From positions 1 to 19,220 of the forward strand of contig NZ_JAUOEO010000003.1 in assembly GCF_030540825.1 (NCBI RefSeq): 19,220 nt of DNA, given 5' to 3'. Position numbers and translations under genes: made by a program. Shown here piece by piece: positions 1,525-19,220 of the stretch (position 1 is its first letter; each line of letters opens with the position of its first letter). Below the pieces are notes generated by a model. That model searched no databases, was not told where the DNA came from, and saw nothing but the letters and a program-made list of their open reading frames with translations. This DNA is from Flavivirga spongiicola (GTDB lineage Bacteria; Bacteroidota; Bacteroidia; Flavobacteriales; Flavobacteriaceae).

Positions 1525-1576
1525 GTTTTTAACTTATGGTATATATTCTTTTTACTTCCTCTTACCAATATATTTA

Positions 1577-1607
1577 CAGCCACTAGCTACAAGCTAGCGG
1601 TAGCTGG
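1577..1607 (+). repeat. Hairpin site 1 (CAGC-type)
   Basis: This is an imperfect palindrome. The outer stem is CAGC/GCTG and the inner stem is CTAGCT/AGCTAG around a 3-nt loop. An asymmetric internal loop has CA on the left side and CGGTA on the right. The same CA/CGGTA asymmetry occurs in the other well-preserved sites of both arrays and gives the hairpin a direction. Confidence 0.85.
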
Positions 1608-1679
1608 AACTTGTATCAACCTTAACAACAAAATTTAACTATTGTTAAATAAAAAATATAATTATAAGTAAATTACAAA

Positions 1680-1715
1680 TTAAGAAGCTACTCTATTTCT
1701 AAAGTAGCTTCTTAA
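1680..1715. terminator. Stem-loop with 13-bp arms, terminator-like
   Basis: TTAAGAAGCTACT (1680-1692) pairs perfectly with AGTAGCTTCTTAA (1703-1715) around a 10-nt loop. A T-rich tract follows. The same stem-loop recurs at 1952-1987 and, inverted, at 17210-17240, where it follows the stop codon of an XRE-regulator remnant. That position suggests it began as a gene terminator. Confidence 0.7.
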
Positions 1716-1748
1716 CTTATTTCCTTACTCTTGACTGGCTAATCTTTA

Positions 1749-1782
1749 CCGCCACTAGTTTTTAAACTAGCGGTAGCGGGGG
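1749..1782 (+). repeat. Hairpin site 2 (CCGC-type)
   Basis: The outer stem is CCGC/GCGG and the inner stem is CTAGTTT/AAACTAG with a 2-nt loop. The right arm carries the unpaired CGGTA and the left arm carries CA. A G-run follows the hairpin. The spacer just upstream (CTTGACTGGCTAATCTTTA) is shared with sites 4 and 7. Confidence 0.88.
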
Positions 1783-1847
1783 ACTTTTTAACTTATGATA
1801 TGTAATATTAAGTTTATTCTTTTTACTTACTCTTACCAATATATTTA

Positions 1848-1878
1848 CAGCCACTAGCTACAAGCTAGCGGTAGCTGG
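1848..1878 (+). repeat. Hairpin site 3 (CAGC-type)
   Basis: This is the copy-2 counterpart of site 1 and has the same 31-nt sequence: CAGC/GCTG outer stem, CTAGCT/AGCTAG inner stem and the CA/CGGTA asymmetric internal loop. The lead-in CTTACCAATATATTTA is also shared with site 1. Confidence 0.85.
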
Positions 1879-1951
1879 AGCTTGTATCAACCTTAACAGC
1901 AAAATTTAACTATTGTTAAATAAAAAATATAATTATAAGTAAAATTATAAA

Positions 1952-1987
1952 TTAAGAAGCTACTCTATTTCTAAAGTAGCTTCTTAA
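1952..1987. terminator. Stem-loop with 13-bp arms, copy 2
   Basis: TTAAGAAGCTACT (1952-1964) and AGTAGCTTCTTAA (1975-1987) form perfect arms around a 10-nt loop, identical to the copy-1 stem-loop. A T-rich stretch follows. Confidence 0.7.
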
Positions 1988-2020
1988 TTTATTTTCTTAC
2001 TCTTGACTGGCTAATCTTTA

Positions 2021-2054
2021 CCGCCACTAGTTTTTAAACTAGCGGTAGCGGGGG
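2021..2054 (+). repeat. Hairpin site 4, fused to XRE remnant
   Basis: This has the same sequence as site 2. Its terminal G-run runs straight into codon 50 of an XRE regulator, so this site marks the point where the regulator's 5' half was lost. Confidence 0.88.
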
Positions 2055-2221
2055 TTTCTGTAGATTACCTTATTGGCAAAACCAATTTACTCCTTGATAA
2101 AGATGCTGTTGATAGATTGGTTAAGATTTCTGAACTCAATGACGAGAACAAAAGCTTTATCCTTAATATGATTGATATGGCTCTACGTGATTTTAAAACT
2201 AAAAAATCTTACGCCTCTTAA
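2054..2221 (+). pseudogene. XRE-family regulator remnant (C-terminal 55 residues)
   Basis: In frame from 2054 the sequence reads VSVDYLIGKTNLLLDKDAVD and continues to a TAA stop at 2219-2221. It matches residues 50-104 of the regulator at 16823-17137, differing at only two residues (Val/Ile and Ser/Ala) but at about 18 synonymous positions. The whole helix-turn-helix region (residues 1-49 of the intact copy) is absent, and the fragment abuts hairpin site 4 with no start codon. The synonymous-only divergence shows that both copies were under protein-level selection before this one was cut. It is probably not expressed as a functional protein now. It converges on the LRR gene at 2342, just as the intact copy converges on the immunity gene at 16695. 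Confidence 0.85.
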
Positions 2222-2225
2222 ATGT

Positions 2226-2257
2226 AAAAAGCCTCTGCATCTCTGTAAAAGCTTTTT
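2226..2257 (+). terminator. Terminator of the XRE remnant
   Basis: AAAAAGC (2226-2232) pairs with GCTTTTT (2251-2257), and the T-rich sequence CTTTTTATTTTATT follows. It lies 4 nt after the remnant's stop codon. The equivalent position behind the intact copy has a homologous stem-loop (16789-16816). Confidence 0.65.
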
Positions 2258-2279
2258 CTTTTTATTTTATTACTCTTGC

Positions 2280-2341
2280 TGCCAATCTTTGACGCCACAA
2301 GTTAAAAACTTGCGGTAGCGCATACTAGGGAACAGCGGGGG
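2280..2341 (+). repeat. Hairpin site 5; 61-nt perfect inverted repeat with site 6
   Basis: Bases 2280-2340 are the exact reverse complement of 16700-16760, which lie 14.4 kb away. The hairpin has CGC/GCG outer and CAAGTT/AACTTG inner stems and the usual CA/CGGTA internal loop. A tail CATACTAGGGAACAGCGGGG then runs up to the stop codon of the LRR gene. Adjacent coding sequence (the XRE tail) is visibly more diverged than this site. Confidence 0.92.
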
Positions 2342-3196
2342 CTACCATATTTTACCTCCTGTTCGATTTAAGCCTTTTATTAAAGATGTTTTATTTCCAT
2401 CTTCTACTTGAACTATTTTATTATGAATACTTAAAAGCTTTAACCCTTTTAAAGAATCAATAAATTTAAAAGAATCAATTTTCTTGACCCCTAATTGTAA
2501 ATATTCAATATGTGGAACATTTAACAAAAAATCGTTGACATAATATAATTTTGGGCAAGAATCAATATATATTTCCCTTAAATTTATTAGTTTTTTAGTA
2601 ATTCCTTCTAAACTTAAAATATTCCTATTGTGAAATAAATTTAAGCTTTCTAAGTTCACAAAATTAGACAAACCTATTAATGACTCAATTTTAGCACCTC
2701 TAAGCATTAAATATCTTAAGTGTATATTCTTTGAAAAAATAGAAACATCTTTTTCTTTAAATTTATTTGTAATAGCTATTACCTCTAAAGTATCAATATT
2801 TGTTAATGTCTTATATGAAAAGTTATTAATTTCTCCCGCTAAACTTCTTAAGTTAGTAAAATTGCTATAATCAATTTTCTTATTTGTTGAACTTATTTTT
2901 TCAAGATGCTTTAAACTATATAACCCTTTTATATCTTTAACATGTTTACTTAAAATATTTACAGCTTTTATAGACTTTAAATCATAGTTATTCAAAAAAT
3001 CTATATTATTTAACTCATACTCATCGGTAAAAGTTATTGTATTAAAATCAGTATCGCTTAATAATTCATTTACATTTTCTTCAATGAAATTGGAATTTAC
3101 AAAAACAGTATTAGCTATAAATAATTCATTATTTAATTTCGTTAATGACTTACGAAATTTTGTGTTATCCCTTATCTGAATTTCACCTTTGGTCAT
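2342..3196 (-). CDS. Leucine-rich-repeat protein, candidate immunity protein for the orphan RHS tip
   Basis: This 284-residue protein has no signal peptide or membrane segment and is probably cytoplasmic. From about residue 55 to 265 it is built of irregular leucine-rich repeats of roughly 22-25 residues. Examples are LRYLMLRGAKIESLIGLSNF, LESLNLFHNRNILSLEGI, LREIYIDSCPKLYYVNDF and IEYLQLGVKKIDSFKF. Its ATG lies 14 nt after the stop codon of the RHS toxin tip on the same strand, the position expected of a cognate immunity gene in polymorphic-toxin loci. Its stop codon touches hairpin site 5. LRR proteins bind other proteins, so an inhibitor role is plausible, but immunity is inferred from position and not from a recognised immunity family. 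It could instead be an ordinary LRR protein carried with the cassette. Confidence 0.8.
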   Translation of the reverse strand: MTKGEIQIRDNTKFRKSLTKLNNELFIANTVFVNSNFIEENVNELLSDTDFNTITFTDEYELNNIDFLNNYDLKSIKAVNILSKHVKDIKGLYSLKHLEKISSTNKKIDYSNFTNLRSLAGEINNFSYKTLTNIDTLEVIAITNKFKEKDVSIFSKNIHLRYLMLRGAKIESLIGLSNFVNLESLNLFHNRNILSLEGITKKLINLREIYIDSCPKLYYVNDFLLNVPHIEYLQLGVKKIDSFKFIDSLKGLKLLSIHNKIVQVEDGNKTSLIKGLNRTGGKIW

Positions 3197-3210
3197 ACTC
3201 TTTATATATT

Positions 3211-4269
3211 TTAATTTGTTCCTGGTGCATTTATTATATTTAAAAGATTTTCAATACCATCAGCTTCTTGTATAAACCTTCTTTCCATTGCGTTTATACT
3301 AAAATCTATACTGGAATCGAATTCAAAAAACTCTACTTTATCTAATGTTCTTCCTGGTGCTTTTGGTCCTCTTTTTGATGTTCCTTCGACTAATTCAACT
3401 AAAGACCTTTTCGTTCTTTGTGCAAATCCGTTAACCCCTGCAGCTTGTCCTATATATACTGAACCATCTGTCATAGTAAATCTATAAATACCTTTTGCTT
3501 TTTGTAAAGCGTTTTGAATAGATCCTCTAACAAGAAGTTCTGCTTTTGTCATTGTTTTAGTAGCTGTTTGCGTAACTGTCTGTGTTGCAGTTTGTCTTGC
3601 AACATCATCAACAACAGAAATTGGAGGAGCCAAATCAGCCAAAGGAAGCTTAGGCGGGGTAATCCTTTTAATACTCTTAAGTAAGCCCGTTCCTTTAGCT
3701 CCTATTGCGTAATCAAGTGCTGCGAAAGTAGCATTACCCTGTTTTCTTCCACCGTCTTCATCAAGGAAATCCTTTATTTGTCCAGCAGGTTGTAAACTCT
3801 GAGAAACCTCTGTCAAACCAATAGCCATGGCTTTAAGAGAACCTCCCGGGTTATCTTTTATGGCTTTTACTGTTTTTGTGTCTAAAAGATACCCTCCCGT
3901 TACTTGGTCTATTGGACTAGCTTTTGCATACGTAGTGATAATATCACTAGCGAAATCGACCGTACTTTCAACATTATCCAGAAGAGCCGTTCCGTAATCT
4001 GTCCACCATTTCTTCTTCCAAATTTCCCTACCTTCTAACTCTGTAGCATCTATTACTCTATTCTCACTAAAAACATAAGGCGAATTATGTGGGAAATGAA
4101 ACGCTAACGGGTCTAAAGATAAAAACCGTCCAACCCTTGGGTCGTGCATCCTAAACTTATAGTTCAAAGAACTTCCCGGAGAGCCTTTAACCTCATTGTC
4201 CATCTCCTGTCCCTGGAAGCCATACCTGTAGTCGCCATCGCCCTGGTGGTTGCGGTTGGGCAGTATCAT
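3211..4269 (-). CDS. Orphan RHS C-terminal tip with GIY-YIG nuclease-like toxin domain
   Basis: Residues 1-80 are the end of an RHS shaft: YRYGFQGQEMDNEVKG, RMHDPRVGRFLSLDPL, then a VFSEN..IDATELEG stretch. Residues 81-245 are a variable linker rich in Thr and Ala. Residues 260-352 look like a GIY-YIG endonuclease fold, with GIY at 260-262, YIG at 272-274, nearby Arg285/Arg288, and a likely catalytic Glu329 in MERRFIQEADGIENLLNI. The predicted activity is DNA cleavage in a target cell. RHS homology continues upstream of this ATG to about 4287 (DYYPFG), then stops at an in-frame TAA after unrelated sequence. The shaft and secretion signals are therefore missing and this is not a complete toxin gene. 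The corresponding part of the large RHS protein is at 15240 onward on the opposite strand. It may be a stored tip, silent until joined to a shaft, or a relic of one. Confidence 0.85.
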   Translation of the reverse strand: MILPNRNHQGDGDYRYGFQGQEMDNEVKGSPGSSLNYKFRMHDPRVGRFLSLDPLAFHFPHNSPYVFSENRVIDATELEGREIWKKKWWTDYGTALLDNVESTVDFASDIITTYAKASPIDQVTGGYLLDTKTVKAIKDNPGGSLKAMAIGLTEVSQSLQPAGQIKDFLDEDGGRKQGNATFAALDYAIGAKGTGLLKSIKRITPPKLPLADLAPPISVVDDVARQTATQTVTQTATKTMTKAELLVRGSIQNALQKAKGIYRFTMTDGSVYIGQAAGVNGFAQRTKRSLVELVEGTSKRGPKAPGRTLDKVEFFEFDSSIDFSINAMERRFIQEADGIENLLNIINAPGTN

Positions 4270-4578
4270 ACCAAAAGGATAGTAATCAAAAACTCGAAAA
4301 CATTAGTATTTATAAGAACGTATCCGTTTTTTAATTATTAAAAAACGAGCATTTTTAAGCGATTTCTGATTATTTTTTAATGGAAAACGCAGAAAACTAC
4401 AGCATAAATGTATTAATTAAAATAATGAAAAATAAACTTTAATGGTTTTAATTTTTCTCTGGTTAACCATTAACTGATGGTACAGGATAATAATAAAAAA
4501 CCATCACTTTAATAAGGCAAAACCCTAGCTGTATTTTTTAAGTTACTTATACTTTAGCTATTTAAGTATTTATAACTG
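4270..4578. other. AT-rich non-coding region between the orphan tip and the MORN-like gene
   Basis: Bases 4271-4287 are the last recognisable RHS-shaft homology (DYYPFG on the minus strand). Beyond that no coding sequence is apparent. There are two small symmetrical elements: the palindrome TGGTTAACCA at 4460-4469, and TGATGGT (4475-4481) with ACCATCA (4500-4506). A TATACTTTAG stretch shortly upstream of the MORN-like gene could be part of its promoter, but I see no clear Bacteroidota -33/-7 pair. Confidence 0.6.
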
Positions 4579-5358: not shown

Positions 5359-5411
5359 AATTTTGATACCATTCTAAGCCATGTCTTTAGGTGCTCTATC
5401 CCAGAAACGTA

Positions 5412-6242: not shown

Positions 6243-6306
6243 AATGTGTTGTATTTTGTGTTTCTACAAATGTCTTACGACTTACATTATTCTCTCTTGA
6301 CAAATG

Positions 6307-6885: not shown

Positions 6886-6937
6886 TTTTTCTAATTATAA
6901 CGATTGTAATCCAAAGGGATTGTTTTTTTATTAAAAC

Positions 6938-7234: not shown

Positions 7235-7262
7235 AGACGTATGTATTACACTTAAATTGGTA

Positions 7263-8336: not shown

Positions 8337-8339
8337 AAT

Positions 8340-9667: not shown

Positions 9668-9668
9668 G

Positions 9669-9758
9669 CTATTTGTTTTTAAGAAAGTGAACGGCTTTGA
9701 ATATGAAAAGTAGTGCGGAAAGAAGTATTAATTTTAGGACTTTAGCACAAGCAAACTT
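9669..9758 (-). pseudogene. 3' remnant of a small membrane-protein gene upstream of cydA
   Basis: An open frame of 29 codons, VLKLILLSALLFIFKAVHFL in its centre and ending HFLKNK, stops at 9669, one nucleotide before the cydA ATG. The hydrophobic peptide and tight spacing suggest the tail of a small membrane protein in the cyd operon. Related clusters often carry one, such as a DUF4492 protein, but I cannot confirm that family. The frame is closed just upstream (TAA at 9759-9761) with no start codon, so the 5' part is missing at the same junction where the RHS gene loses its own 5' end. Confidence 0.35.
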
Positions 9759-9765
9759 TTAGAAT

Positions 9766-9790
9766 TTATAGTGTAAAATTTACACTATAA
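9766..9790. repeat. Perfect 12-bp-arm palindrome at the RHS/cyd junction
   Basis: TTATAGTGTAAA (9766-9777) and TTTACACTATAA (9779-9790) are exact reverse complements around a single central A. The palindrome sits between two divergent genes that have both lost their 5' ends. It has no T-run suited to a terminator. It could be an operator, a recombination or cruciform breakpoint, or a join artefact. Confidence 0.8.
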
Positions 9791-12700
9791 GATAAGGAAA
9801 TTTAAAAATTCTAGCACTGTAAATAATCCAGTTGAGCCTGGACAGTACCTTGGAGGCGGTAATACTTATGATGAAACAGGAACCTGTAATAAAGAATCCT
9901 ATTTTAATAAAGCCATAGTAAAGCTTCTTAATAGTCTTATAGATACTAACCAGATCAATAGTTCTGATATTAATATTACTGGTTTAGATGCTTATGTTAA
10001 TGGCTATTTACCGGAGTTTTTTGAGAGTGATCAAATAATAGCATGGAGTGCTATAGGTAACAATACTTATACATTGGCTATTGATGGGGTAGATCATTTC
10101 TTAATGAGTTTAGATGCGCCGTTACCAACTACTGGTACGATTACTAATGTTAGTTTTGATTACACCTATAATAATGAAGGAAATACTATAGTGGGTCAAA
10201 CTGTAAAAGTAACTTGGTTAACAGCTGCCAATCAAAAACTGAGTACTATAGGAACGGTACAGGCTACAGAAGAAACATTGCTTAATTTTTTATGTTGTGG
10301 GGATATTAATGATTATTATGGAGAAGAGTTTATTAATACGTCAACCTGTAGTTTAAGAGCGGATTTAGAAGATACTTTTGAAGACCATTTAATTTCAATT
10401 TTTAACGATGCTTTTCAAAAGTATGATTTAATTAATGGAGGTGGAGGTGTAAGCAACCTTGTGTCTATGAGCTCATTAAATACAAATTCTTTTTTAAACG
10501 ATAATAATATTAGAGTTGAAGAAAGAATGAGAGTTACTTCCCAAGTGTTTAGAGATTTAGATGGTAGTCATATTAATGTTAAAAGAGGTGTTGCAAGTTG
10601 CTATTTGGAAACAGCAGGGGTGTCTAAAACTCTTTCTGTTGAAATAGGAGATCATAGAACCCCAGAAGGTAAAGGTTCTGTAACGATTCAAATTCAGGGA
10701 GGTAATACTCCTACTAGTATTAACCTTGATGATATTGCTATAATAGAAAACATAGATCTTGTAGGAGAAAGGGGGCGTTCTATAGAAATAACATATAGAA
10801 ATCATGAAAATCAAAGGGAAGTAAAAGCGGCTATATTATACTTAAGTTCAGACGGTCCTTATGGTTGTGTAAGTACTGATCCATATCCTTGTGGGGCAGG
10901 TTTTGTTATTTGTCCTTTGTTTAATGTGAGTTTGCCAGGAGATCCACATATTACGGAATGTCTTTCTTCAAATACTGAAGATGAAGAAATACAATTTGAA
11001 GCCGTAATGAAGAATTTGTTCAATGAAATTTTAGAATATCGAACAGTCAATCAGGTAAATGATTCCGTGCCATTTCGTATAGATGGATTTCCAGCATATG
11101 TTTCTTTAAAAAATCAGTTTGCCCCTTTAAAAGACAGATGGGTTTCATTTGGAGCTACTCAAGATTTTTCTGAGGATGAAGTATATGCAGTAATTTTGAA
11201 TACTACATTTAAGTATTATATTCAGATACAGTTTTCTTCTTCACCAGAGTTAGGAACTCCAAATCCAAAAAATAGTATTCAACTTGTTGTTAGTAATCCA
11301 TTTGATTGGTATGAAATGACTGAGTTTGAAATTGCAGAGAATAACATTTTAGTTGAAAGAACTTTTTTTAGCTACATAGACCCAAATACAGGCGTTGAAG
11401 AAACAAGAATGGGTCAATTGGAATTTTACGGTACCAACGAGTTCGATATATGCCCTTTTTTAGCTTATGGCGTCAATGCTAATTTTACAGAAGCAGCAAC
11501 AGTCACTACCCCAAAATTCAAGCCCGTATTCGTTTTACGTAAAATGATTACAGCTCCAGGTGGAGCCCATAAATATTTTTATAAAGATTTAGAGTTTATA
11601 CCCAACGGATTTAGTGCATCTATTGACGAACTCATTAATTTAGAAGTTGATATTAATTTTAGTAATTATTCAGAGAATCCGGAAGATTATAATAGCGCCG
11701 AAATCATATTGAATGGAAAATCATATAAACTATCTAATAACGGTTTAACATTTAATGTTATTGATTCCGAACAGGTAGGGTATCGACGCCCTCCAATAAA
11801 TAGGCTTTCATGGGATTATCAGGGAACTTGGGGAGCTACTTTCGATATTTTTAACTTTTCATATAACCTTAATGGAGAAGAGCGTGTTTATCATTTAAAT
11901 GAGGGCAGTAAAAATGCTGTTTCAACAAATGGGAAAAAAATCAAAATCGTTGATGATAGTATTTGGTTTACCGACCCTATTTTTGGTACAGGTTTGAGAT
12001 TTGAGAACAATGCGGATTTGTCCTGGTATGATGATGTACCTTTTATATATGAAGAAGGAGTAGATTTAACATATAAGGCTAGCTTTAAAATTCAAGATGT
12101 ACTGCCCATTACTGACGGGAATGGGTATGGCTTTATTACTCAAATAGATCATGAAGATCCTCTTAATACGGAAAACTTATACCAGCTTGAAATTTATGCT
12201 ACAAATGGAGATAATGTCATACCCGAAAATTGTAGTGAAGGAGATAAAGTATGTGTTGCTCAACCCGTAGAACCTGTTAGCTGTACCGATAAATTTGCGG
12301 CATTTACAGCAGCTATCAATGGAGTGAGTGATACCGAACAACAAGGGATGGCAGAAGAAGACTTCTGTAATAACCAATACGCTTATATCACAGATGATTA
12401 TATCTATTACCTAACCAAGTTAGGAGTCGCCAATGCAGATCAATCCATACATTACATAACCATTGCAGAATTTGGTGCGACCGAGTTTGGTTATGGCTAT
12501 GAAGACCCAGACCTTAATATCGATGGTATGAAAGGTATTATAGATGCTTACGCTGCGCATGTTACGACTATGGATGCAGCAGGAACCTCGGACGATATTA
12601 AGACCTGGGCGCAATTTACATCCGATCAATTATATTTATTAACAGCAGCAGGCACTACTTGTATAAGTCTTCCTGCGCCATTACCAATAACAACAAAGGG

Positions 12701-15700
12701 GTATCAACCACCCACCTTCCCAGAAGACCCACCTTGTGTAGAATTTGCAAAAGCTATTTATAACAGTTACAGAGACGATGCCTATGAAGCTCTTTTAGAT
12801 AAAGAACGTGAAGATTTTATAAATGCCTACCTTAAAAATGCCGTAGAAAATGCCGTAGAAAATTTTAGTATGAAGTATCATGATAAAGAATACCAATACA
12901 CCCTATACTATTACGATCAGGCAGGCAACCTATCGCAAACCGTACCCCCAGAAGGCGTTAACAGATTTACAAATGCCGAGTTAATCGCTCAGGATACAAA
13001 TGGAGCAGCACTTAACGATAGAATCAATATTCATAGAAAGAATAACGAAACTGATGAAAACACGACGTTACTCCCACCACACGATTATAAAACGCAATAT
13101 GCCTATAATTCGTTAAACCAACTCGTATGGCAGTTTACACCAGATGGCGGAGAAACACGATTTGCGTATGATGCTTTGGGGCGTATTGTAGCTTCACAAA
13201 ATGCCAAACAATTAGTAAATAATACTTTTAGCTATACCGTTTATGATGCATTAGGACGTATCGCAGAAGCAGGAGAGTTGGTACCAAATAAAGCCATAGC
13301 TATTAATCAAACCACGGGTAAACTTATAGAGACAGCAACTGGAGATCCCATATTTACAGATGGCTTTTCAGATGATAATTCGGTGATTCTGTTTCCAAAG
13401 AATGTATCCGATCAACAAAATGAAGTTACCCGTACAAAATACAATATATACATTAGCGACCCTAGTATTGTGTTTAAAACATTAGATGCAAATAGCTTAA
13501 CGACCACTTCTAGAAACAGGGTGACCGAAGTGTATTATTTCGATACCGTAACAGCTCCAACCACATCTATTGATTTTGATAACGCCATGTATTACAATTA
13601 CGACATACATGGTAATGTAAAAGAATTGGTGCATCATAACAGGCTGTTAGCTAAATCGTCTATGCCATATTCAGGGCTTAAACGTGTAGAATACGAATAC
13701 GATTTAATAAGCGGTAATGTAAACAAGGTGTACTATCAAAAAGATAGTCCAGACCAATTTATACACCAGTATACCTACGATGCCGATAATAGAATTACGG
13801 CCGTACAAACATCGTCCGATGGTTATATTTGGGAGCAAGATGCCAGTTACGACTATTATGCACACGGCCCACTAGCAAGAACCGAATTGGGTGACAAAAA
13901 AGTACAGGGACAAGATTATGCCTATACGATCCAAGGTTGGTTAAAAGGGGTGAATGCCGATGTGTTAAACCCAACAAACGATTTAGGGAAGGATGGTGAT
14001 ACAGACTCTAACATCGCAAAAGATGCCTATGGGTATGCCTTAACTTATAATGATGCCGATTATGAACCAGTAGGGACTATTACTGCGTTTGTAAATAGTG
14101 ATACGAACGGTGTAAATAATATTAAAAACTTGTACAACGGTAACATCAAGCAAATGGTAACCGATGTTATGGATACCAATGAGACCGCTTTGGGTATCCA
14201 GGTAAATCATTATGAATACGATCAGTTAAACCGTATTAAATCTATGCAAGGTTATCATACAGCCGCTACAGTTGGTAATGAAAATTATTATGGTGATTAT
14301 AAGTATGATAACAATGGTAACCTAAAAACTTTAAATAGAAAAGCCCATACAGGCCAAAGTATGGATCAATTGGGATATGATTATGCAGAAACAAAAACAA
14401 ACCCATTAACAGGTGAAGAAACAAAAAACAATCAATTAACCCGTTTAGAAGATCAAGTTGGGGATTTAGGTCTTAATGATTTAGGAACTCCTCATAATTA
14501 TGAATATGACACTATTGGACAACTAATATCAGATTTAGATGATGAAGGAAATGGTATTACCAATATCAATTGGCGTGTAGACGGAAAAGTAGCGAGTATT
14601 ATCAAAACAGGTGGTACAGAAATACATTTTAGATATGATGGCTTGGGTAATCGAATTGCAAAAACCGTTTTACCTGAAAACGAAACAACTGTTTACACAC
14701 GTGATGCTCAAGGTAATGTATTGGCAGTTTACGAAACTAACGAAGTCAATATCACTAATATTACAGCCAATAAAACCATAACACTTAAAGAACATCATAT
14801 TTATGGAAGTTCTAGGTTGGGTATCGAACAGAAGAATATATCTATACCAGAAGATGGAGATACATTAATAATACAAGAAAATCTGGTACTAACAACCGAT
14901 AATATTACGACAACGGAGTTTTTACAAGCGGCAAATAAAATAGATGTAGCTGGAGGTGTAAATACTTATGTCATTACTGATACAGGCAATGTAACCATGC
15001 GAGCAGGTCAGGTAATATTAAAACCTGGATTCTCAACAGTTTCAGGAGCTAATTTCCTAGCAGAAGCCCAAAATATTGACGCTACCTTACCAGAAAATAC
15101 GTTTGCACGTAAAGTAGGAGATAAGCGCTTTGAACTTAGCAACCACCTAGGGAATGTACTAAGTGTGGTAAGTGATCGAAAATTAGTTGACGACCCACTT
15201 AATTTTACTAACTTTACTGCGGACGTTCTTACATATAATGATTACTATCCTTTTGGAATGCTACTACCTAATCGCCATGGGAGCAGTGATAGCTACCGCT
15301 ATGGCTTCCAAGGTCAGGAGAAAGATGATGAAGTTAAAGGAGAAGGCAATAGCTTGAATTATACTTTTAGGATGCACGATCCACGTGTAGGAAGATTTTT
15401 TGCGGTTGACCCTTTAACTAGAGAGTACCCTCATTATACACCTTATAGTTTTAGTGGAAATAAGGTTATTGCTTATGGAGAATTAGAAGGATTGGAAGAA
15501 TACCATTATACAATATCATTTACAGATATAGGAGAACCAATATTGGAGCTAGTTAGTGTTAATGATTTTGTAAACGTAAATAGTTTTCAAAGTTTTTTAC
15601 ATACTCTAACTTTTGGATTAACCGAAGCTCCACCAGTAAACCCTTTTGAAAGGCATATAGTTCATTCAGGAGAATCTGTAGATTATTTCTTTGATGGTGG

Positions 15701-16316
15701 TCCATATGGGGCAGGTTTTCATGAAGAAGAAGTTAATTTGAATTATACAAGTAAAGCTGAATTAATTGCGGGGCTAAGTACTATAAAAGAAGATTTGACT
15801 AGTAGAAGAAATCTTATAGAAAATTCGGTAAAAGTAGGTCAGGCATTATCAACAGTAGCTTCAGAACAGCAACATTATGGTACAGGAGCTAGAGTTAAAA
15901 CAAGATCTACTCCAAATAAAAAGAGTATAGTTCCTAATAGTAATACTCATACTTTTAATGGTAAAACATTTAATAAAACTACTAGTCCCATAGTTATACC
16001 TAAAAGAGCTACAGTTGTAAATCAAATAAAAACGGGCTATACGCAGGTTAAGTTTAATTGGAAAAGAGGAAAATTCAAATATGAGGCTAGATGGCATACA
16101 CGAACTCCTGGCGCACCAAATTCTCAGGGAGATACATGGGTAATAACAAGAACAACTCCTGGAAATGCTCAAGGTCAACGAAAATCACAGCACGTTCTTA
16201 CTGGTAAATACAAGTGGACGCCAATTAAAAAATGGCAAGAAGCAGTGAAGGCTAATCAAAATGGGACGGCAACTGGTGCTCAACAACAATTATTAAAAGA
16301 TGGTCATCATCAATGA
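9777..16316 (+). CDS. Giant RHS/YD-repeat polymorphic toxin, 5'-truncated
   Basis: Residue numbers count from a TTG at 10074. The frame is already open from 9777 and is clearly coding from about 9820 (VEPGQYLGGGNTYDETGTC), but it has no ATG before 10104 and no signal peptide. The true N-terminus is therefore missing. Residues 1-900 are Bacteroidota-specific and hold related units that begin with a Cys and an amphipathic helix. Residues about 935-1780 are the RHS shaft: YTLYYYDQAGNLSQTVPPEG, FAYDALGRIVASQ, YEYDLISGNV, FELSNHLGNVLSVVSDRK, YYPFGM, YRYGFQGQEKDDEVKG and RMHDPRVGRFFAVDPL. A beta-rich insert lies near 1605-1664 (VTMRAGQVILKPGFS). The shaft normally encapsulates the toxin tip. The tip (1782-2080) ends in a basic domain with KFKYEARWHTRTPGAPNSQG and a terminal DGHHQ. 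It resembles what I recall of the family called polymorphic toxin type 17, which I hold loosely. The stop overlaps the next gene. Confidence 0.9.
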   Translation, partial: NLHYKIRKFKNSSTVNNPVEPGQYLGGGNTYDETGTCNKESYFNKAIVKLLNSLIDTNQINSSDINITGLDAYVNGYLPEFFESDQIIAWSAIGNNTYTLAIDGVDHFLMSLDAPLPTTGTITNVSFDYTYNNEGNTIVGQTVKVTWLTAANQKLSTIGTVQATEETLLNFLCCGDINDYYGEEFINTSTCSLRADLEDTFEDHLISIFNDAFQKYDLINGGGGVSNLVSMSSLNTNSFLNDNNIRVEERMRVTSQVFRDLDGSHINVKRGVASCYLETAGVSKTLSVEIGDHRTPEGKGSVTIQIQGGNTPTSINLDDIAIIENIDLVGERGRSIEITYRNHENQREVKAAILYLSSDGPYGCVSTDPYPCGAGFVICPLFNVSLPGDPHITECLSSNTEDEEIQFEAVMKNLFNEILEYRTVNQVNDSVPFRIDGFPAYVSLKNQFAPLKDRWVSFGATQDFSEDEVYAVILNTTFKYYIQIQFSSSPELGTPNPKNSIQLVVSNPFDWYEMTEFEIAENNILVERTFFSYIDPNTGVEETRMGQLEFYGTNEFDICPFLAYGVNANFTEAATVTTPKFKPVFVLRKMITAPGGAHKYFYKDLEFIPNGFSASIDELINLEVDINFSNYSENPEDYNSAEIILNGKSYKLSNNGLTFNVIDSEQVGYRRPPINRLSWDYQGTWGATFDIFNFSYNLNGEERVYHLNEGSKNAVSTNGKKIKIVDDSIWFTDPIFGTGLRFENNADLSWYDDVPFIYEEGVDLTYKASFKIQDVLPITDGNGYGFITQIDHEDPLNTENLYQLEIYATNGDNVIPENCSEGDKVCVAQPVEPVSCTDKFAAFTAAINGVSDTEQQGMAEEDFCNNQYAYITDDYIYYLTKLGVANADQSIHYITIAEFGATEFGYGYEDPDLNIDGMKGIIDAYAAHVTTMDAAGTSDDIKTWAQFTSDQLYLLTAAGTTCISLPAPLPITTKGYQPPTFPEDPPCVEFAKAIYNSYRDDAYEALLDKEREDFINAYLKNAVENAVENFSMKYHDKEYQYTLYYYDQAGNLSQTVPPEGVNRFTNAELIAQDTNGAALNDRINIHRKNNETDENTTLLPPHDYKTQYAYNSLNQLVWQFTPDGGETRFAYDALGRIVASQNAKQLVNNTFSYTVYDALGRIAEAGELVPNKAIAINQTTGKLIETATGDPIFTDGFSDDNSVILFPKNVSDQQNEVTRTKYNIYISDPSIVFKTLDANSLTTTSRNRVTEVYYFDTVTAPTTSIDFDNAMYYNYDIHGNVKELVHHNRLLAKSSMPYSGLKRVEYEYDLISGNVNKVYYQKDSPDQFIHQYTYDADNRITAVQTSSDGYIWEQDASYDYYAHGPLARTELGDKKVQGQDYAYTIQGWLKGVNADVLNPTNDLGKDGDTDSNIAKDAYGYALTYNDADYEPVGTITAFVNSDTNGVNNIKNLYNGNIKQMVTDVMDTNETALGIQVNHYEYDQLNRIKSMQGYHTAATVGNENYYGDYKYDNNGNLKTLNRKAHTGQSMDQLGYDYAETKTNPLTGEETKNNQLTRLEDQVGDLGLNDLGTPHNYEYDTIGQLISDLDDEGNGITNINWRVDGKVASIIKTGGTEIHFRYDGLGNRIAKTVLPENETTVYTRDAQGNVLAVYETNEVNITNITANKTITLKEHHIYGSSRLGIEQKNISIPEDGDTLIIQENLVLTTDNITTTEFLQAANKIDVAGGVNTYVITDTGNVTMRAGQVILKPGFSTVSGANFLAEAQNIDATLPENTFARKVGDKRFELSNHLGNVLSVVSDRKLVDDPLNFTNFTADVLTYNDYYPFGMLLPNRHGSSDSYRYGFQGQEKDDEVKGEGNSLNYTFRMHDPRVGRFFAVDPLTREYPHYTPYSFSGNKVIAYGELEGLEEYHYTISFTDIGEPILELVSVNDFVNVNSFQSFLHTLTFGLTEAPPVNPFERHIVHSGESVDYFFDGGPYGAGFHEEEVNLNYTSKAELIAGLSTIKEDLTSRRNLIENSVKVGQALSTVASEQQHYGTGARVKTRSTPNKKSIVPNSNTHTFNGKTFNKTTSPIVIPKRATVVNQIKTGYTQVKFNWKRGKFKYEARWHTRTPGAPNSQGDTWVITRTTPGNAQGQRKSQHVLTGKYKWTPIKKWQEAVKANQNGTATGAQQQLLKDGHHQ

Positions 16317-16695
16317 TACTAAAAGCATGAAAATTATAGATTTATATAAAGGTTTTGAAAGAGAGCCACTATTGGAAATATCTAGACGGAACGATGAAGG
16401 TAAGAGTCTAGTTTTATTTAAAATTTGGATAGGTTTTTTTGATTTTATAATTAATCAAATAAAACCAAATAATGAAGGGATGTGGGAAGGAGTTCCTCTT
16501 TACTACCATACAGATACTGGTTGGAATGAAGAATCGGAATGGAAATGTGAAGATATTAGATTGTTTATTCAACAATTGGAAGCTATAGATCTAAATAAAC
16601 TTGGTGATGATTATAGAAAAGTTTTATTAGAATTAATAATTATGTGTAAAGATTGCTTGAATAACAAAGAAGACCTTTATTTTGTTTATGATTAA
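16300..16695 (+). CDS. Candidate immunity protein for the RHS tip
   Basis: This is a 131-residue acidic, soluble protein with no signal peptide (SRRNDEGKSLVLFKIWIGFF, MWEGVPLYYHTDTGWNEESE, then a C-terminal helical region LLELIIMCKDCLNNKEDLYF). The ATG at 16300 overlaps the RHS stop codon by 17 nt. An in-frame ATG at 16327 gives MKIIDLYKGF and begins 10 nt after the RHS stop. Both have an A-rich upstream stretch and the choice is undecided. A small acidic protein directly behind a basic RHS tip is the typical arrangement of a cognate immunity gene. I do not recognise the family, so the role is inferred from position and charge. Hairpin site 6 follows the stop codon within a few bases, as site 5 does for the LRR gene. 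Confidence 0.78.
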   Translation: MVIINDTKSMKIIDLYKGFEREPLLEISRRNDEGKSLVLFKIWIGFFDFIINQIKPNNEGMWEGVPLYYHTDTGWNEESEWKCEDIRLFIQQLEAIDLNKLGDDYRKVLLELIIMCKDCLNNKEDLYFVYD

Positions 16696-16699
16696 GTAT

Positions 16700-16760
16700 C
16701 CCCGCTGTTCCCTAGTATGCGCTACCGCAAGTTTTTAACTTGTGGCGTCAAAGATTGGCA
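16700..16760 (-). repeat. Hairpin site 6; 61-nt perfect inverted repeat with site 5
   Basis: This is the exact reverse complement of 2280-2340. It starts 4 nt after the immunity gene's stop with the block CCCCGCTGTTCCCTAGTATG. It then forms the CGC/GCG and CAAGTT/AACTTG hairpin and ends in the conserved spacer AAAGATTGGCA. It stands between the convergent immunity and XRE genes. Confidence 0.92.
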
Positions 16761-16788
16761 GTCAAGACAAGAGAAATAAAAAAAAGAG

Positions 16789-16816
16789 AAAGCTTTTACA
16801 GAGAAGTAAAGGCTTT
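16789..16816 (-). terminator. Terminator of the XRE regulator
   Basis: AAAGCTTTTAC (16789-16799) pairs with GTAAAGGCTTT (16806-16816) with one mismatch. On the minus strand the stem lies 6 nt after the XRE stop codon and is followed by CTCTTTTTTTTATTTCTC. It is homologous to the stem-loop behind the remnant at 2226-2257. Confidence 0.75.
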
Positions 16817-16822
16817 TTGCAC

Positions 16823-17137
16823 TTAAGAGGCGTACGCTTTTTTAGTTTTAAAATCCCGTAGCGCCATATCAATCATATTTAAGATAAAGGACTTGTTCTC
16901 GTCATTAAGTTCAGAAATCTTTACCAGCCTATCAATAGCATCCTTATCAAGAAGTAGATTAGTTTTACCAATCAAATAATCGACAGATACTTCCAGAGCA
17001 TCCGCAATTTTAGAAACCACATCAATAGAAGGTGTAATATCCCCACGTTCATATCTTCCAATCACATCTCCAGAAGTACCAATTATTTTACCAAGCGCAG
17101 ACTGCGAAAGCTTTTTCTTTTTGCGAAGTAACATCAC
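16823..17137 (-). CDS. XRE-family helix-turn-helix regulator
   Basis: This 104-residue protein has an N-terminal Cro/C1-type helix-turn-helix: LSQSALGKIIGTSGDVIGRY, then ERGDITPSIDVVSKIADALE (residues about 10-49). The usual VDYLIGKTNLLLDKD follows, and then a helical C-terminal segment, probably for dimerisation. The reading frame begins GTG-ATG at 17137, only 5 nt after hairpin site 7. Many homologues carry a few more N-terminal residues, so the site may have replaced the original start region. It converges on the immunity gene and is followed by its own stem-loop terminator. A truncated paralogue at 2054-2221 has the same position relative to the other RHS tip. The recurring association suggests the gene belongs to the cassette, either as a regulator of the tip/immunity pair or of the mobile unit. 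Its target is unknown. Confidence 0.88.
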   Translation of the reverse strand: MMLLRKKKKLSQSALGKIIGTSGDVIGRYERGDITPSIDVVSKIADALEVSVDYLIGKTNLLLDKDAIDRLVKISELNDENKSFILNMIDMALRDFKTKKAYAS

Positions 17138-17141
17138 ATTA

Positions 17142-17240
17142 TCCCCCGCTACCGCTAGTTTAAAAACTAGTGGCGGTAAAGATTAGCCAGTCAAGAGTAA
17201 GGAAATAAGTTAAGAAGCTACTTTAGAAATAGAGTAGCTT
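17142..17240 (-). repeat. Hairpin site 7 plus terminator; 99-nt perfect inverted repeat with 1685-1783
   Basis: The hairpin (17146-17176) has CCGC/GCGG and CTAGTTT/AAACTAG stems. The conserved spacer and a stem-loop, AAGCTACT (17215-17222) with AGTAGCTT (17233-17240), follow. On the minus strand that stem-loop terminates the XRE2 remnant. All 99 nt are the exact reverse complement of 1685-1783, which lie about 15.4 kb away. Confidence 0.93.
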
Positions 17241-17243
17241 TTT

Positions 17244-17381
17244 TTAAGAGTACGCTTTTTTAGCTTTAGTATCTCTAATATAGGCATCAAGAATTTTAAA
17301 GAACGCATTTTTATCTTCAATTTCCATATTAATAATAGCTTCCATGTGTTTGGTAATATCTTTATCAAAAAGAACAGTATT
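17244..17381 (-). pseudogene. Second XRE-type regulator remnant (C-terminal tail)
   Basis: On the minus strand this reads NTVLFDKDITKHMEAIINME, then a tail ending DTKAKKAYS and a TAA stop at 17244-17246. The pattern (a leucine/aspartate segment after the helix-turn-helix, then two helices and a KAKKAYS end) parallels the tail of the regulator at 16823-17137 (KTKKAYAS), but the sequence is a distinct paralogue. An in-frame stop lies about eight codons upstream within the hairpin-site sequence. The helix-turn-helix itself is therefore gone, and the fragment abuts site 8 just as the remnant at 2054 abuts site 4. Confidence 0.65.
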
Positions 17382-17383
17382 GC

Positions 17384-17433
17384 TATTCCCTGTTATTCCT
17401 CATATGCGCTAGCGCTTCGTCTTTGACAAGTGC
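17384..17433 (-). repeat. Hairpin site 8 (degenerate, loop lost)
   Basis: Read on the minus strand, the tail GCGCATATGAGGAATAACAG corresponds to the tail of sites 5 and 6 (GCGCATACTAGGGAACAG). The upstream TGTCAAAGACGAAG corresponds to their spacer. The inner stem is replaced by the 10-bp palindrome GCGCTAGCGC (17406-17415). It occupies the same position between a terminator and an XRE tail as the other sites. Confidence 0.6.
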
Positions 17434-17473
17434 CGTATCGAGTAAGTAAAACGGAATTAAAAGAATAAGTTAG

Positions 17474-17501
17474 AAAGCTTTTACAGAAATTTAGGGGCTT
17501 T
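17474..17501 (-). terminator. Weak terminator-like stem-loop at the outer end of the right array
   Basis: AAAGC (17474-17478) and GCTTT (17497-17501) form a short stem whose flanks match the XRE terminators at 16789 and 2226. On the minus strand it precedes site 8, so it probably belonged to a further cassette gene that is now lost. Nothing coding is visible between it and 17577. Confidence 0.4.
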
Positions 17502-17577
17502 TTTTAAGCAATTGTCCCGTCCTAAAAATAGATTTACAACTTGTTCTTAGTCTTGTTATTGGTTTACAATAATAGGA

Positions 17578-17706
17578 TTTTTACATAACAATCCAGTAGA
17601 AAGTGGTTTTGTAACTAATGCTATAGATTGGAAATATTCAAATACAAAAAATTTTCAAGACAATAACACAATTTCAAATATAGATAATATTGTCCTTTTG
17701 GGGTAA
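17578..17706 (+). pseudogene. 3' remnant of a Y1 (IS200/RAYT-type) transposase
   Basis: The frame reads FLHNNPVESGFVTNAIDWKY, then SNTKNFQDNN and a hydrophobic end, and stops at 17704-17706. The HNNPVESGFV..A.DWKYS segment is the characteristic C-terminal motif of REP-associated tyrosine transposases and relatives (pattern HxNPVxxGxV..p..WxySS). The catalytic HUH motif and tyrosine lie upstream in such proteins and are absent here, so this is a broken tail. The upstream sequence 17507-17577 is not recognisably coding. It matters because RAYT enzymes act on short GTAG-bearing hairpins like those in the adjacent arrays. Confidence 0.65.
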
Positions 17707-17793
17707 AAAGTATAAATCATATGCCTATTTTTACTATTCCCAACTATCTATATGCTATGATAAAATCCATTTAAAAACATGTAATTTTATAGG

Positions 17794-17812
17794 CTATAAT
17801 GCGTCGTTATAG
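17794..17812 (+). promoter_or_regulatory. Inverted repeat just upstream of the recombinase
   Basis: CTATAA (17794-17799) and TTATAG (17807-17812) flank a 7-nt spacer and end 11 nt before the recombinase ATG. A site here could be an operator for autoregulation or a small recombination core. The half-site TTATAG also occurs in the palindrome at 9766-9790. The function is unproven. Confidence 0.35.
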
Positions 17813-17823
17813 TATCATCCTTT

Positions 17824-18870
17824 ATGAAAAAAACCACGATACTCTTACCCTTATTTAAACAATTTATCCGTGATAGTGAAACAGGAAAACGTCTTAAAAA
17901 AAATGGCGAAAAAATAACAAAGAACACCATAGATAATTACAGGTATGTACATAATAATTTAACTAAATTCTGTGTAGAAACCGATTTTGATTTTCGCATA
18001 TGCAATGTCTATAAACTAAATACACGAGAGTTTATTTCAGAAAAGAACTACTGGAAAAAGTTCTATAAAAAATATACCGAATTTTTATACAAAAAAGGCT
18101 GTCATGATAATTATGTAGGCGCCAATATAAAAATTATACGTGCTTTTTTTAATTATTTAAAAGATGATAAAAATATCCCAACTGGTGACTTTCAAAAGCT
18201 ATTTTATATTCGTAAAGAAGAAGTAGAAATTTTAGTACTCTCTCCTGAGCAACTAAAATTTTTAATACATGATAAAGATTTTGATCAGTCGCTTACTCCT
18301 GCTATAAAACGTACCAAAGATATGTTTGTTTTTGGCTGTACTACTGGTTTACGTATTTCTGATATTAATAGACTCACCAATAAAAATTTTGAAAAACAAA
18401 ATGATGATTGGTACTTAAAAATAAAGTCACAAAAAACAAAAACCTATAGCTTTATAAAACTACCTAATTACGCAGCAACTATTTACAAACGTTATAAACC
18501 CAAATCATCAAAAACACCGATATTTAAAAATATTAGCCTTTTTATTTTTAATAGAAATTTAAAATTAATAGGAGAAAAAGCAGGTTATATACAACCCATA
18601 CATATGACAAGGGAGCGCTTGGGAAAAGCCAAAAATGTCACTATTAATGGTAAACAAAAACAGATACGTTTTTGTGATAAAATGAGTTCACATATGATGC
18701 GAAGAACTGCGATTACTACATTACTCATACTAGGAATGCCAGAGCATTTAGTGCGTAAAATAAGTGGGCATAGTCATGCAAGTAGCTCTTTTAATCGTTA
18801 TGTGCATTATGCTCAAGCCTATATAGATAAGGAGATTGATAAAATACATAGTAAACTGGATAGCTATTAA
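17824..18870 (+). CDS. Tyrosine recombinase (phage-integrase family)
   Basis: This is a 348-residue site-specific recombinase that would break and rejoin DNA through a phosphotyrosine. Residues about 1-130 form the N-terminal core-binding domain (SAM-like). Residues about 138-345 form the catalytic domain. Visible catalytic residues are Arg177 in TTGLRISDINRL, a Lys in KSQKTK (about 204), His290 and Arg293 in SHMMRRTAITTL, His316 in ISGHSHASS, and the probable nucleophile Tyr326 in FNRYVHY. The set appears complete, so the enzyme is probably active. It lies outside the right-hand array and is followed about 50 nt downstream by another degenerate hairpin site. That makes it the best candidate in the window to act on the array sites, though its true target is not shown. 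It could also be a stand-alone integrase of an unrelated element. Confidence 0.93.
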   Translation: MKKTTILLPLFKQFIRDSETGKRLKKNGEKITKNTIDNYRYVHNNLTKFCVETDFDFRICNVYKLNTREFISEKNYWKKFYKKYTEFLYKKGCHDNYVGANIKIIRAFFNYLKDDKNIPTGDFQKLFYIRKEEVEILVLSPEQLKFLIHDKDFDQSLTPAIKRTKDMFVFGCTTGLRISDINRLTNKNFEKQNDDWYLKIKSQKTKTYSFIKLPNYAATIYKRYKPKSSKTPIFKNISLFIFNRNLKLIGEKAGYIQPIHMTRERLGKAKNVTINGKQKQIRFCDKMSSHMMRRTAITTLLILGMPEHLVRKISGHSHASSSFNRYVHYAQAYIDKEIDKIHSKLDSY

Positions 18871-19220
18871 TTAAATTTGTCATTTCATTTGGTTAAAAGC
18901 TTTATTTTCTAACTTTTTTACTACTAGTTTTTAAAACTTGGGGTAGCGAGGAACAAAAATAAAAAGAACATGGTTTGATATCAAATCATTGGAGAACAAA
19001 CTATTGTTGATACCATTTTAAATTGGTTAACAAACTTGTTACATCGAATCAACCTAAAAGGCGCATCTATGTGAAAGAAATTAAAAAAGAATCATTAATT
19101 TTAAACCATAAATGAATCTATTAAAAAATAATCATAAAAGTAATAGAAAATTACTATTTGGTTTTCGTTATCTATTTAATTAAAAGAACAATAATCTAAC
19201 TAATTAACACACTAGCATCA
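18871..19220. other. Non-coding region after the recombinase
   Basis: Apart from the degenerate hairpin at 18921-18955, I see no coding sequence, RNA gene or clear promoter in this AT-rich stretch, which runs to the window edge. Confidence 0.6.
18921..18955 (+). repeat. Hairpin site 9 (degenerate)
   Basis: CTACTAGTTTTTAAAACTTG followed by GGGTAGCGAGGAAC matches the array hairpins (CACTAGTTTTTAAACTAG, then CGGTAGCG) with several substitutions. It retains GTAGCG and the GGGAAC-like tail. It is in the same orientation as the left array and opposite to the nearer right array. Confidence 0.6.

What the first reader, a model, noticed from the sequence alone, without database searches (positions are those of the whole stretch)
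1577..18955. Hairpin-bounded cassette arrays around RHS toxin tips: a possible integron-like exchange system
Seen: nine related hairpin sites lie in two arrays plus one outlier. Successive sites enclose an XRE gene, an XRE tail or non-coding DNA. Each enclosed segment ends in a stem-loop terminator and a conserved spacer (pattern CTCTTG..GCTAATCTTTACCGCCA). Eight sites occur in mirrored orientation on the two sides, and each array ends exactly at the 3' end of an RHS-tip/immunity pair. Known: RHS tips are exchanged, and integrons use ORF-plus-hairpin cassettes with a tyrosine recombinase. Inferred: these hairpins are recombination sites for storing or swapping RHS tip/immunity cassettes, served by the recombinase at 17824 or by a Y1 enzyme. 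The sites do not show the integron attC consensus, so this would be a separate system.
Basis: partly seen in the sequence, partly recalled or inferred. Interest (0 to 1): 0.85.

Follow-up and report, generated by a model that had tools for sequence, protein, structure and literature searches.

The report
Recombinase that flips toxin-tip cassettes
A marine bacterium seems to swap the warhead of a large toxin by flipping an 8.3 kb DNA segment at a short site inside the toxin gene, with a dedicated recombinase encoded in that segment; the hairpins that first drew attention are ordinary mobile repeats lying beside it.

Summary
The hairpins are real: eight strong sites, the ninth weak. They are not the exchange sites. 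They match the ends of a REP-associated (RAYT) transposon family scattered over the genus. The exchange idea is right, with a different site. The window is a 19,220-b contig of a 5.9 Mb genome. It equals, base for base over the 16,049 b tested, the inverted form of an 8,270-bp segment of contig C2. C2 joins the RHS core to tip A; the window joins it to tip B. Both crossovers fall in the 18-mer TGATTACTATCCTTTTGG (15239-15256 +, 4271-4288 -), which encodes DYYPFG. Close relatives of the 17824 recombinase occur in 14 of 397 family genomes and sit among RHS tips. In 45 of 83 loci two such sites face each other as an inverted pair. In 27 of 29 measured pairs upstream homology stops 0-4 nt before TACTAT. 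Family genomes without the recombinase show only same-strand pairs (0 of 9 inverted, against 7 of 7). The Flavobacterium piscinae and F. cupreum assemblies also carry junctions of both orientations. Best reading: a shufflon-like, site-specific inversion system that switches RHS toxin tips. The recombinase's activity was not tested.

The parts
15239..15256 (+). Active crossover site: TGATTACTATCCTTTTGG inside the RHS gene (codes DYYPFG), junction of fixed core and exchangeable tip
   Evidence: identical 18-mer at both inversion joints, 0.03 expected in the window by chance with up to 3 mismatches
4271..4288 (-). Outer (silent) crossover site at the start of orphan tip A
9820..15238 (+). RHS core, fixed part (cut at its 5' end by the artificial closure; 3465-aa ORF in C2)
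   Evidence: YD repeats and Rhs_assc_core
15257..16316 (+). Tip B, joined to the core in this orientation
16300..16695 (+). Putative immunity gene B (131 aa)
   Evidence: no Pfam match; immunity role inferred from position
3211..4270 (-). Tip A, orphan here and probably silent; joined to the core in contig C2 (352-aa frame from its first ATG)
2342..3196 (-). Putative immunity gene A, leucine-rich repeats (284 aa)
   Evidence: LRR models below their cut-offs; immunity role inferred from position
17824..18870 (+). Tyrosine recombinase, proposed tip invertase
   Evidence: PF00589 E 2.6e-14; R177, K201, H290, R293, H316, Y326 invariant in 12 family members; model pLDDT 84.4
15239..19220 (.). Invertible segment, first part (the segment runs on through base 1 to 4288; 8,270 bp in all)
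   Evidence: window 15239-19220 = C2 335639-331658 at 100%
1..4288 (.). Invertible segment, second part
   Evidence: window 1-4288 = C2 331657-327370 at 100%
1..1524 (+). Sulfatase gene carried inside the segment
   Evidence: PF00884
1561..2327 (+). Left hairpin array, five REP-like hairpins (1561, 1733, 1832, 2005, 2276)
16713..17452 (-). Right hairpin array, three REP-like hairpins (16713, 17140, 17400)
16823..17137 (-). XRE-type regulator inside the right array
   Evidence: HTH_3; RstR-like NF041951 82 bits, cut-off 80
2030..2218 (+). XRE tail remnant in the left array
18902..18955 (+). Doubtful ninth hairpin
   Evidence: E 0.093
9813..9819 (.). Apparent artificial circle closure: C2 341170 joined to C2 321951
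   Evidence: all 25 differing alignment positions of the contig (7 of them extra bases at the join) fall in the last ~1.2 kb on the cyd side

Best explanation
This is a shufflon-like switch for an RHS polymorphic toxin. A tyrosine recombinase (17824-18870) recombines two oppositely oriented copies of a short site, (G)ATTACTATCCTTTTGG. One copy lies in the RHS gene at the core/tip joint (codons DYYPFG); the other lies at the 5' end of an orphan tip facing it. Inversion exchanges the tip/immunity pair fused to the core: tip A in C2, tip B in the window. The frame stays open because both tips start at the same codon. Shown: both orientations with exact joints in this assembly, junctions of both orientations in two other species, association of recombinase and sites, a sharp common boundary. 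Inferred: that this enzyme is the agent, that the fused tip is the delivered toxin, that orphan tips are silent. The hairpins are REP/RAYT repeats sitting in the intergenic DNA of the segment.
For: (1) Window = inverted C2 allele, identical over the 16,049 b tested, through both joints; over the whole contig the only differences lie in the last ~1.2 kb beside the artificial closure. (2) In the genome the exact 18-mer occurs only at these joints: twice in C2 and twice in C3. (3) F. piscinae: the core-flank contig and the outer-flank contig both end in the same 127-mer, the end of the 11.2 kb segment contig, whose own two ends differ at 28 of 127 b. F. cupreum: the 123 b after the site at the end of core-flank contig C155 match, with 0 mismatches, the tip that C265 joins to the outer flank, and differ at 26 from the segment's other end. 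Tamlana, Maribacter and one MAG have contig breaks exactly where core and outer flanks diverge. (4) Recombinase >= 54% identical in 14 of 397 family genomes, then a gap to 31-35%. (5) Of 83 recombinase loci 45 have a convergent pair, 41 of them around the recombinase; where core and orphan were told apart, the core lies 5' of the recombinase in 14 and 3' in 12 (L106 and L152 among these are borderline core calls). (6) Upstream homology ends 0-4 nt before TACTAT in 27 of 29 pairs, median identity 9/30 beyond it and 90/100 downstream. (7) Genomes with two or more YYPFGM sites within 25 kb on a contig, counted by hand: inverted in 7 of 7 with the recombinase, 0 of 9 without (Fisher 9e-5).
Against: 15 of 83 loci have no convergent pair although at least 9.5 kb of each flank was searched (12 single site, 3 tandem arrays); 23 more are limited by contig ends. 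The five most distant relatives (46-49%: L148, L150, L151, L153, L154), all near contig ends, show one site (2) or none (3), so the link is not shown for them. 4 of the 14 recombinase genomes have no exact YYPFGM match. In 4 of 45 loci the recombinase lies outside the pair, and three inverted pairs in G195 share one recombinase, so linkage is not absolute. TACTAT is also common in RHS genes of genomes without the recombinase (24 of 72 sites), so the codons alone do not prove a DNA site. In F. piscinae the core flank is open for only 169 codons before a stop, so that core may be broken. No reads were available; both-orientation evidence rests on assembled contigs. No binding or recombination was measured.
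Confidence: 0.86

Rival explanations
1. RecA-type homologous recombination between the partly similar tip starts inverts the segment; the recombinase is a bystander.
For: Tip starts share 90 of 100 b downstream of the site in the median pair. Jackson 2009 proposed homologous recombination for tip displacement (PMC2935791, passages).
Against: Here the exact identity is 18 b and only 48 of the first 100 b from TACTAT match; the identical run is 26 b in Maribacter and 32 b in F. piscinae. The upstream edge is the same within 0-4 nt in 27 of 29 pairs across many genera. Inverted pairs were seen only with the recombinase. Control direct pairs share more upstream sequence (median 26.5 of 30; only six pairs, from four loci).
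Confidence: 0.09
2. The hairpins are the recombination sites of an integron-like system.
For: Hairpins recur beside RHS tips here, at C1:2688344 beside a second RHS gene, and in 22 of 80 named recombinase loci.
Against: The mapped crossovers are not in hairpins. 58 of 80 named recombinase loci, and 34 of 44 scanned loci with an inverted site pair, have none at E <= 0.001. Hairpins occur 9-65 times per genome in the genus and flank RAYT genes as hairpin-Y1-hairpin units (NF047646).
Confidence: 0.03
3. The inverted contig is an assembly artefact and the segment never flips.
For: The contig closes falsely and has errors near the closure.
Against: Both inversion joints are exact at an 18-mer, which should be too short to mislead an assembler (inference; the sequencing method is unknown); no difference in the 16 kb tested; independent assemblies show the same.
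Confidence: 0.04
4. The recombinase is mainly an excision/integration enzyme that moves tip cassettes as circles (integron-like), and inversion is a by-product of head-to-head sites.
For: Tandem same-strand tip arrays beside the recombinase in L088, L092 and L120; internal sites keep two conserved arms around a variable centre.
Against: Convergent pairs are the commonest layout (45 of 83). Cassette circles were not searched for as such. The one circular record met with this recombinase (26.9 kb, H1) carries two same-strand orphan tips and apparently chromosomal genes, no RHS core, and stays unexplained.
Confidence: 0.15

Closest known systems
Shufflon (Rci/pilV, plasmid R64) and related invertible C-termini
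   Same: One tyrosine recombinase, short sites between a constant N-terminus and alternative C-termini, inversion swaps the C-terminus (described in passages of PMC3414803)
   Different: Here the protein is an RHS toxin, each C-terminus travels with a putative immunity gene, and the segment is 8.3 kb with other genes and the recombinase inside; the recombinase was not compared with Rci by sequence
Rhs tip displacement with orphan tips (Jackson 2009, PMC2935791)
   Same: Fixed core, variable tip, displaced tips downstream
   Different: [quoted passage not shown] here a recombinase co-occurs and the joint is a fixed short site
rAID systems of Bacteroidales (PMC12247911, passages)
   Same: Tyrosine recombinase beside arrays of interbacterial immunity genes
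   Different: rAID arrays are co-oriented orphan immunity genes with conserved intergenic motifs; here tips with putative immunity genes are switched onto a toxin core; recombinases not compared by sequence
Tsr-type invertases of Bacteroides (e.g. Tsr0667 shuffling SusC/SusD genes)
   Same: Bacteroidota recombinase making inversions (a passage in PMC11852207; that it is a tyrosine recombinase is recalled)
   Different: Different target and site; no sequence comparison made
GTAG-tagged REPs and RAYT 'REPtrons' (PMC3733652, passages) - for the hairpins
   Same: Small palindromes with a TAGC foot (invariant in 23 aligned), clustered, flanking a RAYT gene
   Different: That paper lists GTAG repeats for other phyla, not Bacteroidetes

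Membership tests
Tyrosine recombinase | Catalytic domain with R-K-H-R-H-Y residues | tested here: met
   PF00589; R177, K201, H290, R293, H316 and Y326 invariant in 12 members; residue roles assigned from general knowledge of the family
Shufflon-like inversion system | Inverted site pair at the joint of constant and alternative C-termini | tested here: met
Shufflon-like inversion system | Both orientations coexist in one strain | tested here: met
   window genome, F. piscinae, F. cupreum, by assembled contigs
Shufflon-like inversion system | The recombinase catalyses the inversion | not testable with these tools
   association only
Shufflon (Rci family) | Recombinase homologous to Rci and sfx-type sites | not tested
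   no Rci sequence was compared
Integron | attC hairpin sites as the recombination sites | tested here: not met
   crossover site is an 18-mer in coding DNA, not a hairpin
Integron | IntI-type integrase | tested here: not met
   best NCBIfam hits far below cut-off: XerD 39.9 of 329.6 bits; NF040815 ('tyrosine recombinase/integron integrase') 38.3 of 220; XerC 35.7 of 335
RHS polymorphic toxin | YD repeats, Rhs-associated core, variable tip plus downstream small gene | tested here: met
   TIGR01643 above cut-off; TIGR03696 31.4-31.9 bits against 32.5, just below; two different tips on one core
RHS polymorphic toxin | Tip is toxic and neighbour gives immunity | not testable with these tools
   no Pfam domain (E <= 0.05) in either tip end or in immunity B
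REP/RAYT element (hairpins) | Palindromes flanking a REP-associated tyrosine transposase gene | tested here: met
   hairpin-Y1-hairpin twice in L234; the L060 enzyme, 74-75% identical to those in L234, scores NF047646 89.5 bits, cut-off 80
REP/RAYT element (hairpins) | Many copies over the genome | tested here: met
   32 hits in own genome, 16 of them the eight window sites counted in both C2 and C3; 9-65 in same-genus genomes
rAID | Recombinase upstream of two or more co-oriented orphan immunity genes | tested here: not met
   tips and core present, mostly convergent layout; the GC criterion was not tested

The most novel reading that the evidence does not exclude
A dedicated Rhs cassette system of Flavobacteriaceae. 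The recombinase recognises two conserved arms (ACGTTCTTnnACATAA and CTTTTGGAATGC) around a variable ~8-9 nt centre, and the centre acts as an address: core and outer sites share one centre (GATTACTA..), internal silent cassettes carry others (GAGTCATCC on both strands in L114, GTCGCTATCC on both in L137). One enzyme can serve several RHS loci in trans (three inverted pairs, one recombinase, in G195), giving a combinatorial, switchable toxin arsenal halfway between a shufflon and an integron.
Probability: 0.35. Interest if true: 0.9.

Novelty: new variant of a known kind. Interest (0 to 1): 0.82.

Why it matters
How Rhs tips are exchanged is an old question; a 2009 study invoked homologous recombination and noted that integron-type exchange needs an integrase not known to accompany Rhs (PMC2935791, passages). 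A recombinase family with a defined site inside the toxin gene makes tip switching directly testable. It suggests that clonal flavobacterial populations carry mixed toxin specificities, with consequences for self-recognition and immunity. It also warns that such loci break assemblies and can leave circular contigs like this one.

Tried and rejected
Hairpins as recombinase sites: rejected. DNA folding of single hairpins: little beyond shuffles. Rfam at gathering scores: no match in the window. First codon control with 30 loci gave only 3 usable YYPFG sites, so it was redone as a pattern search in 397 genomes. PDB sequence search with the recombinase alignment: no match at 1e-3. Pfam on tip ends and immunity B: nothing at 0.05. 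Literature: ten searches, nine bearing on this and one on RAYTs; in the listings shown (capped) I saw no paper on recombinase-driven Rhs tip inversion. The library lacks most subscription papers, and a 2023 survey of programmed inversions that I recall was not held, so it may be there. A 26.9 kb 'plasmid' record carrying the recombinase was examined and left unexplained.
Full report
WHAT THE WINDOW IS. The window is the whole contig C3 (19,220 b) of a 5.90 Mb, four-contig genome. The nearest named relatives of its recombinase among the loci kept are in Flavivirga (92% F. rizhaonensis, 91% F. algicola), so the host is probably Flavivirga (inference). Its genes also lie on contig C2 in another order. 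Window 1-4288 equals C2 331657-327370 reversed, window 15239-19220 equals C2 335639-331658 reversed, both at 100%; bases 19220 and 1 are neighbours in C2. The rest of the window lies forward. Flipping C2 327370-335639 (8,270 bp) gives a sequence identical to the window over the 16,049 b tested, through both joints. The whole contig differs from that allele only in its last ~1.2 kb (25 alignment positions, 7 of them extra bases at the join) and closes C2 341170 onto 321951, which I take as an assembly artefact of a second allele.

THE SWITCH. In C2 the RHS core runs into tip A and a leucine-rich-repeat neighbour gene; in the window the same core runs into tip B and its neighbour. The other pair lies inverted at the far end of the segment, without a core. 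Both joints lie in TGATTACTATCCTTTTGG, present once on each side; up to three mismatches allowed, 0.03 matches are expected in the window by chance. It encodes DYYPFG at the start of the tip. Between the pairs lie a sulfatase, the hairpin arrays, an XRE gene and the recombinase.

THE RECOMBINASE FAMILY. Relatives at 54% identity or more occur in 14 of 397 family genomes; 7 more genomes have only 31-35% relatives. In none of those 7 did the YYPFGM pattern fall within 25 kb of the distant relative, and the 3 loci fetched around them, of 8 such matches, had no such site. A scan of named genomes gave 80 loci, kept from 117. 899 proteins match at 1e-60; of the 120 listed, those with a name bear only generic recombinase or integrase names. 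Six residues that I assign to the catalytic set are invariant in the 12 aligned. The structure model is fair (pLDDT 84.4, pTM 0.63); it could not be compared with solved folds.

ARCHITECTURE. Of the 13 other loci, 12 have tip cassettes beside the recombinase; the 13th is cut by a contig end and shows a cut tip motif there (L108). Over 83 loci (80 named plus L063, L068, L069; ten of the 13 recur among the 80), 75 have a tip-start motif and the 8 without are cut by contig ends. 45 have a convergent inverted pair: 41 with the recombinase inside, 4 outside. 15 lack one despite at least 9.5 kb on each side (12 single, 3 tandem) and 23 are contig-limited. The five most distant members (46-49%) show one site (2) or none (3). 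Where core and orphan are both told apart around the recombinase, the core lies on its 5' side in 14 and its 3' side in 12 (L106 and L152 are borderline), as expected for a segment found in either orientation.

CONTROLS. (a) YYPFGM sites in the same 397 genomes: 58 have any, 10 with and 48 without the recombinase; 4 recombinase genomes (G114, G134, G242, G392) have none. Where two or more lie within 25 kb on a contig, counted by hand, they are inverted in 7 of 7 recombinase genomes and in 0 of 9 others (Fisher 9e-5). G059 has a pair across the contig ends and was not counted. (b) TACTAT codons: 30 of 33 sites against 24 of 72; first listed site per genome 10 of 10 against 19 of 48, p = 4e-4. 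(c) Boundary: 29 convergent pairs could be measured (own C2 locus, 26 from the 83 loci, two more from G195; pairs at contig ends, without the TAYTAYCC pattern or without the tip motif were dropped). In 27 the homology stops 0-4 nt before TACTAT; in 2 (L100, L127) both flanks are of the outer type and match further. Control same-strand pairs (6 pairs from 4 of 9 fetched loci; the rest failed the filter) share 0, 12, 12, 12, 165 and 1609 nt; this control is small.

OTHER STRAINS IN TWO STATES. In F. piscinae the core-flank contig (C7) and the outer-flank contig (C60) both end with the same 127-mer that begins the segment contig, whose own two ends differ at 28 of 127 b; its core flank is open for 169 codons only. 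In F. cupreum the 123 b after the site at the end of core-flank contig C155 are identical to the tip that C265 joins to the outer flank, and differ at 26 from the segment's other end; the two flanks agree at 9 of 30 b. In Tamlana sp. (77-mers differing at 3 b), Maribacter (77-mers differing at 19 b) and a MAG (141-b overlap, one side) the contigs stop exactly where core and outer flanks diverge. Mixed orientations explain the first two best; the last three are consistent with them. G195 has three inverted pairs on three contigs but one recombinase, which suggests action in trans.

SITE ANATOMY. GTTCTT recurs at -18 in 13 of 33 core sites and at -35/-34 in 28 of 54 outer sites; internal tips of longer arrays have it in 24 of 35, in 19 of them 21-26 nt before the CTTTTGG-like anchor, about the same place as in the core (reversed-word control 3, 3 and 0). 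Many internal sites read ACGTTCTTnnACATAA, a variable 8-9 nt, then CTTTTGGAATGC; L088 and L114 depart from the left arm. This looks like two binding arms around an exchangeable centre (inference). Why the outer motif is shifted is unexplained.

THE HAIRPINS. Eight of nine are confirmed by the model. They occur in 16 of 40 genomes searched, this one included, among them all 12 same-genus genomes, and at 16 places in this genome besides the duplicated locus, several of them weak (E up to 0.008). Only 22 of 80 named recombinase loci have one at E <= 0.001. Of 20 clusters fetched, 8 contain a gene or fragment matching the Y1 transposase and 10 a match to RHS, some weak. In L234 two units read hairpin, Y1 gene, hairpin; the L060 enzyme passes the curated RAYT cut-off. 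The one Y1 gene found in this genome (open frame C1:2139422-2139988) has a weak hairpin hit (E 0.002) 49 b away. So they are REP-type repeats of a RAYT; their company with RHS tips may reflect insertion behind genes.

STEPS SHOWN AND INFERRED. Shown: alternative orientations, exact joints, association, sharp boundary. Inferred: catalysis by this enzyme, fused tip = delivered toxin, silence of orphans, centre-addressing. Not tested: toxicity, immunity, expression, switching rate.

LITERATURE. Seen as passages: PMC2935791, PMC12247911, PMC13183296, PMC6421346, PMC10353427, PMC3414803 (its 'RHS' is a residue motif), PMC11852207, PMC3733652, PMC12529663 (its 'RHS' means right-hand side). No paper seen in these searches describes this system; that is a statement about those searches and their capped listings only.

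Noticed in passing
L267 (NZ_CP109997.1, 1-26892): A 26.9 kb circular record called a plasmid carries this recombinase family, two same-strand orphan tips with near-identical outer flanks, and what look like chromosomal genes, but no RHS core; perhaps another assembly circle from such a locus, or a real circle.
   Followed up: partly
window 4285-4344 and outer sites of other loci: The outer site is preceded by a conserved (A/C)GTTCTTATATTTATTGA-like stretch about 35 nt upstream, shared between genera but at a different spacing from the core's GTTCTT.
   Followed up: partly
L247, L248, L079 (genome G195): Three RHS loci with inverted site pairs but one recombinase gene in the genome: possible action in trans.
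   Followed up: partly
L088, L092, L120: Tandem same-strand arrays of tip/immunity cassettes next to the recombinase, with varying centre sequences before CTTTTGG-like starts.
   Followed up: partly
window 4579-5358; L059, L068, L069: A MORN-type gene in the window (PF07661 just below cut-off) and ORFs that look similar by eye beside the recombinase locus in three other genomes, suggesting a conserved chromosomal position.
   Followed up: no
window 16823-17137: The XRE gene in the hairpin array passes the cut-off of the RstR-type repressor model; an XRE tail copy lies in the left array, as if carried by the repeat units.
   Followed up: no
window 8858-9812: cydA is split by indels in the window, consistent with low-coverage consensus next to the false closure.
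   Followed up: yes
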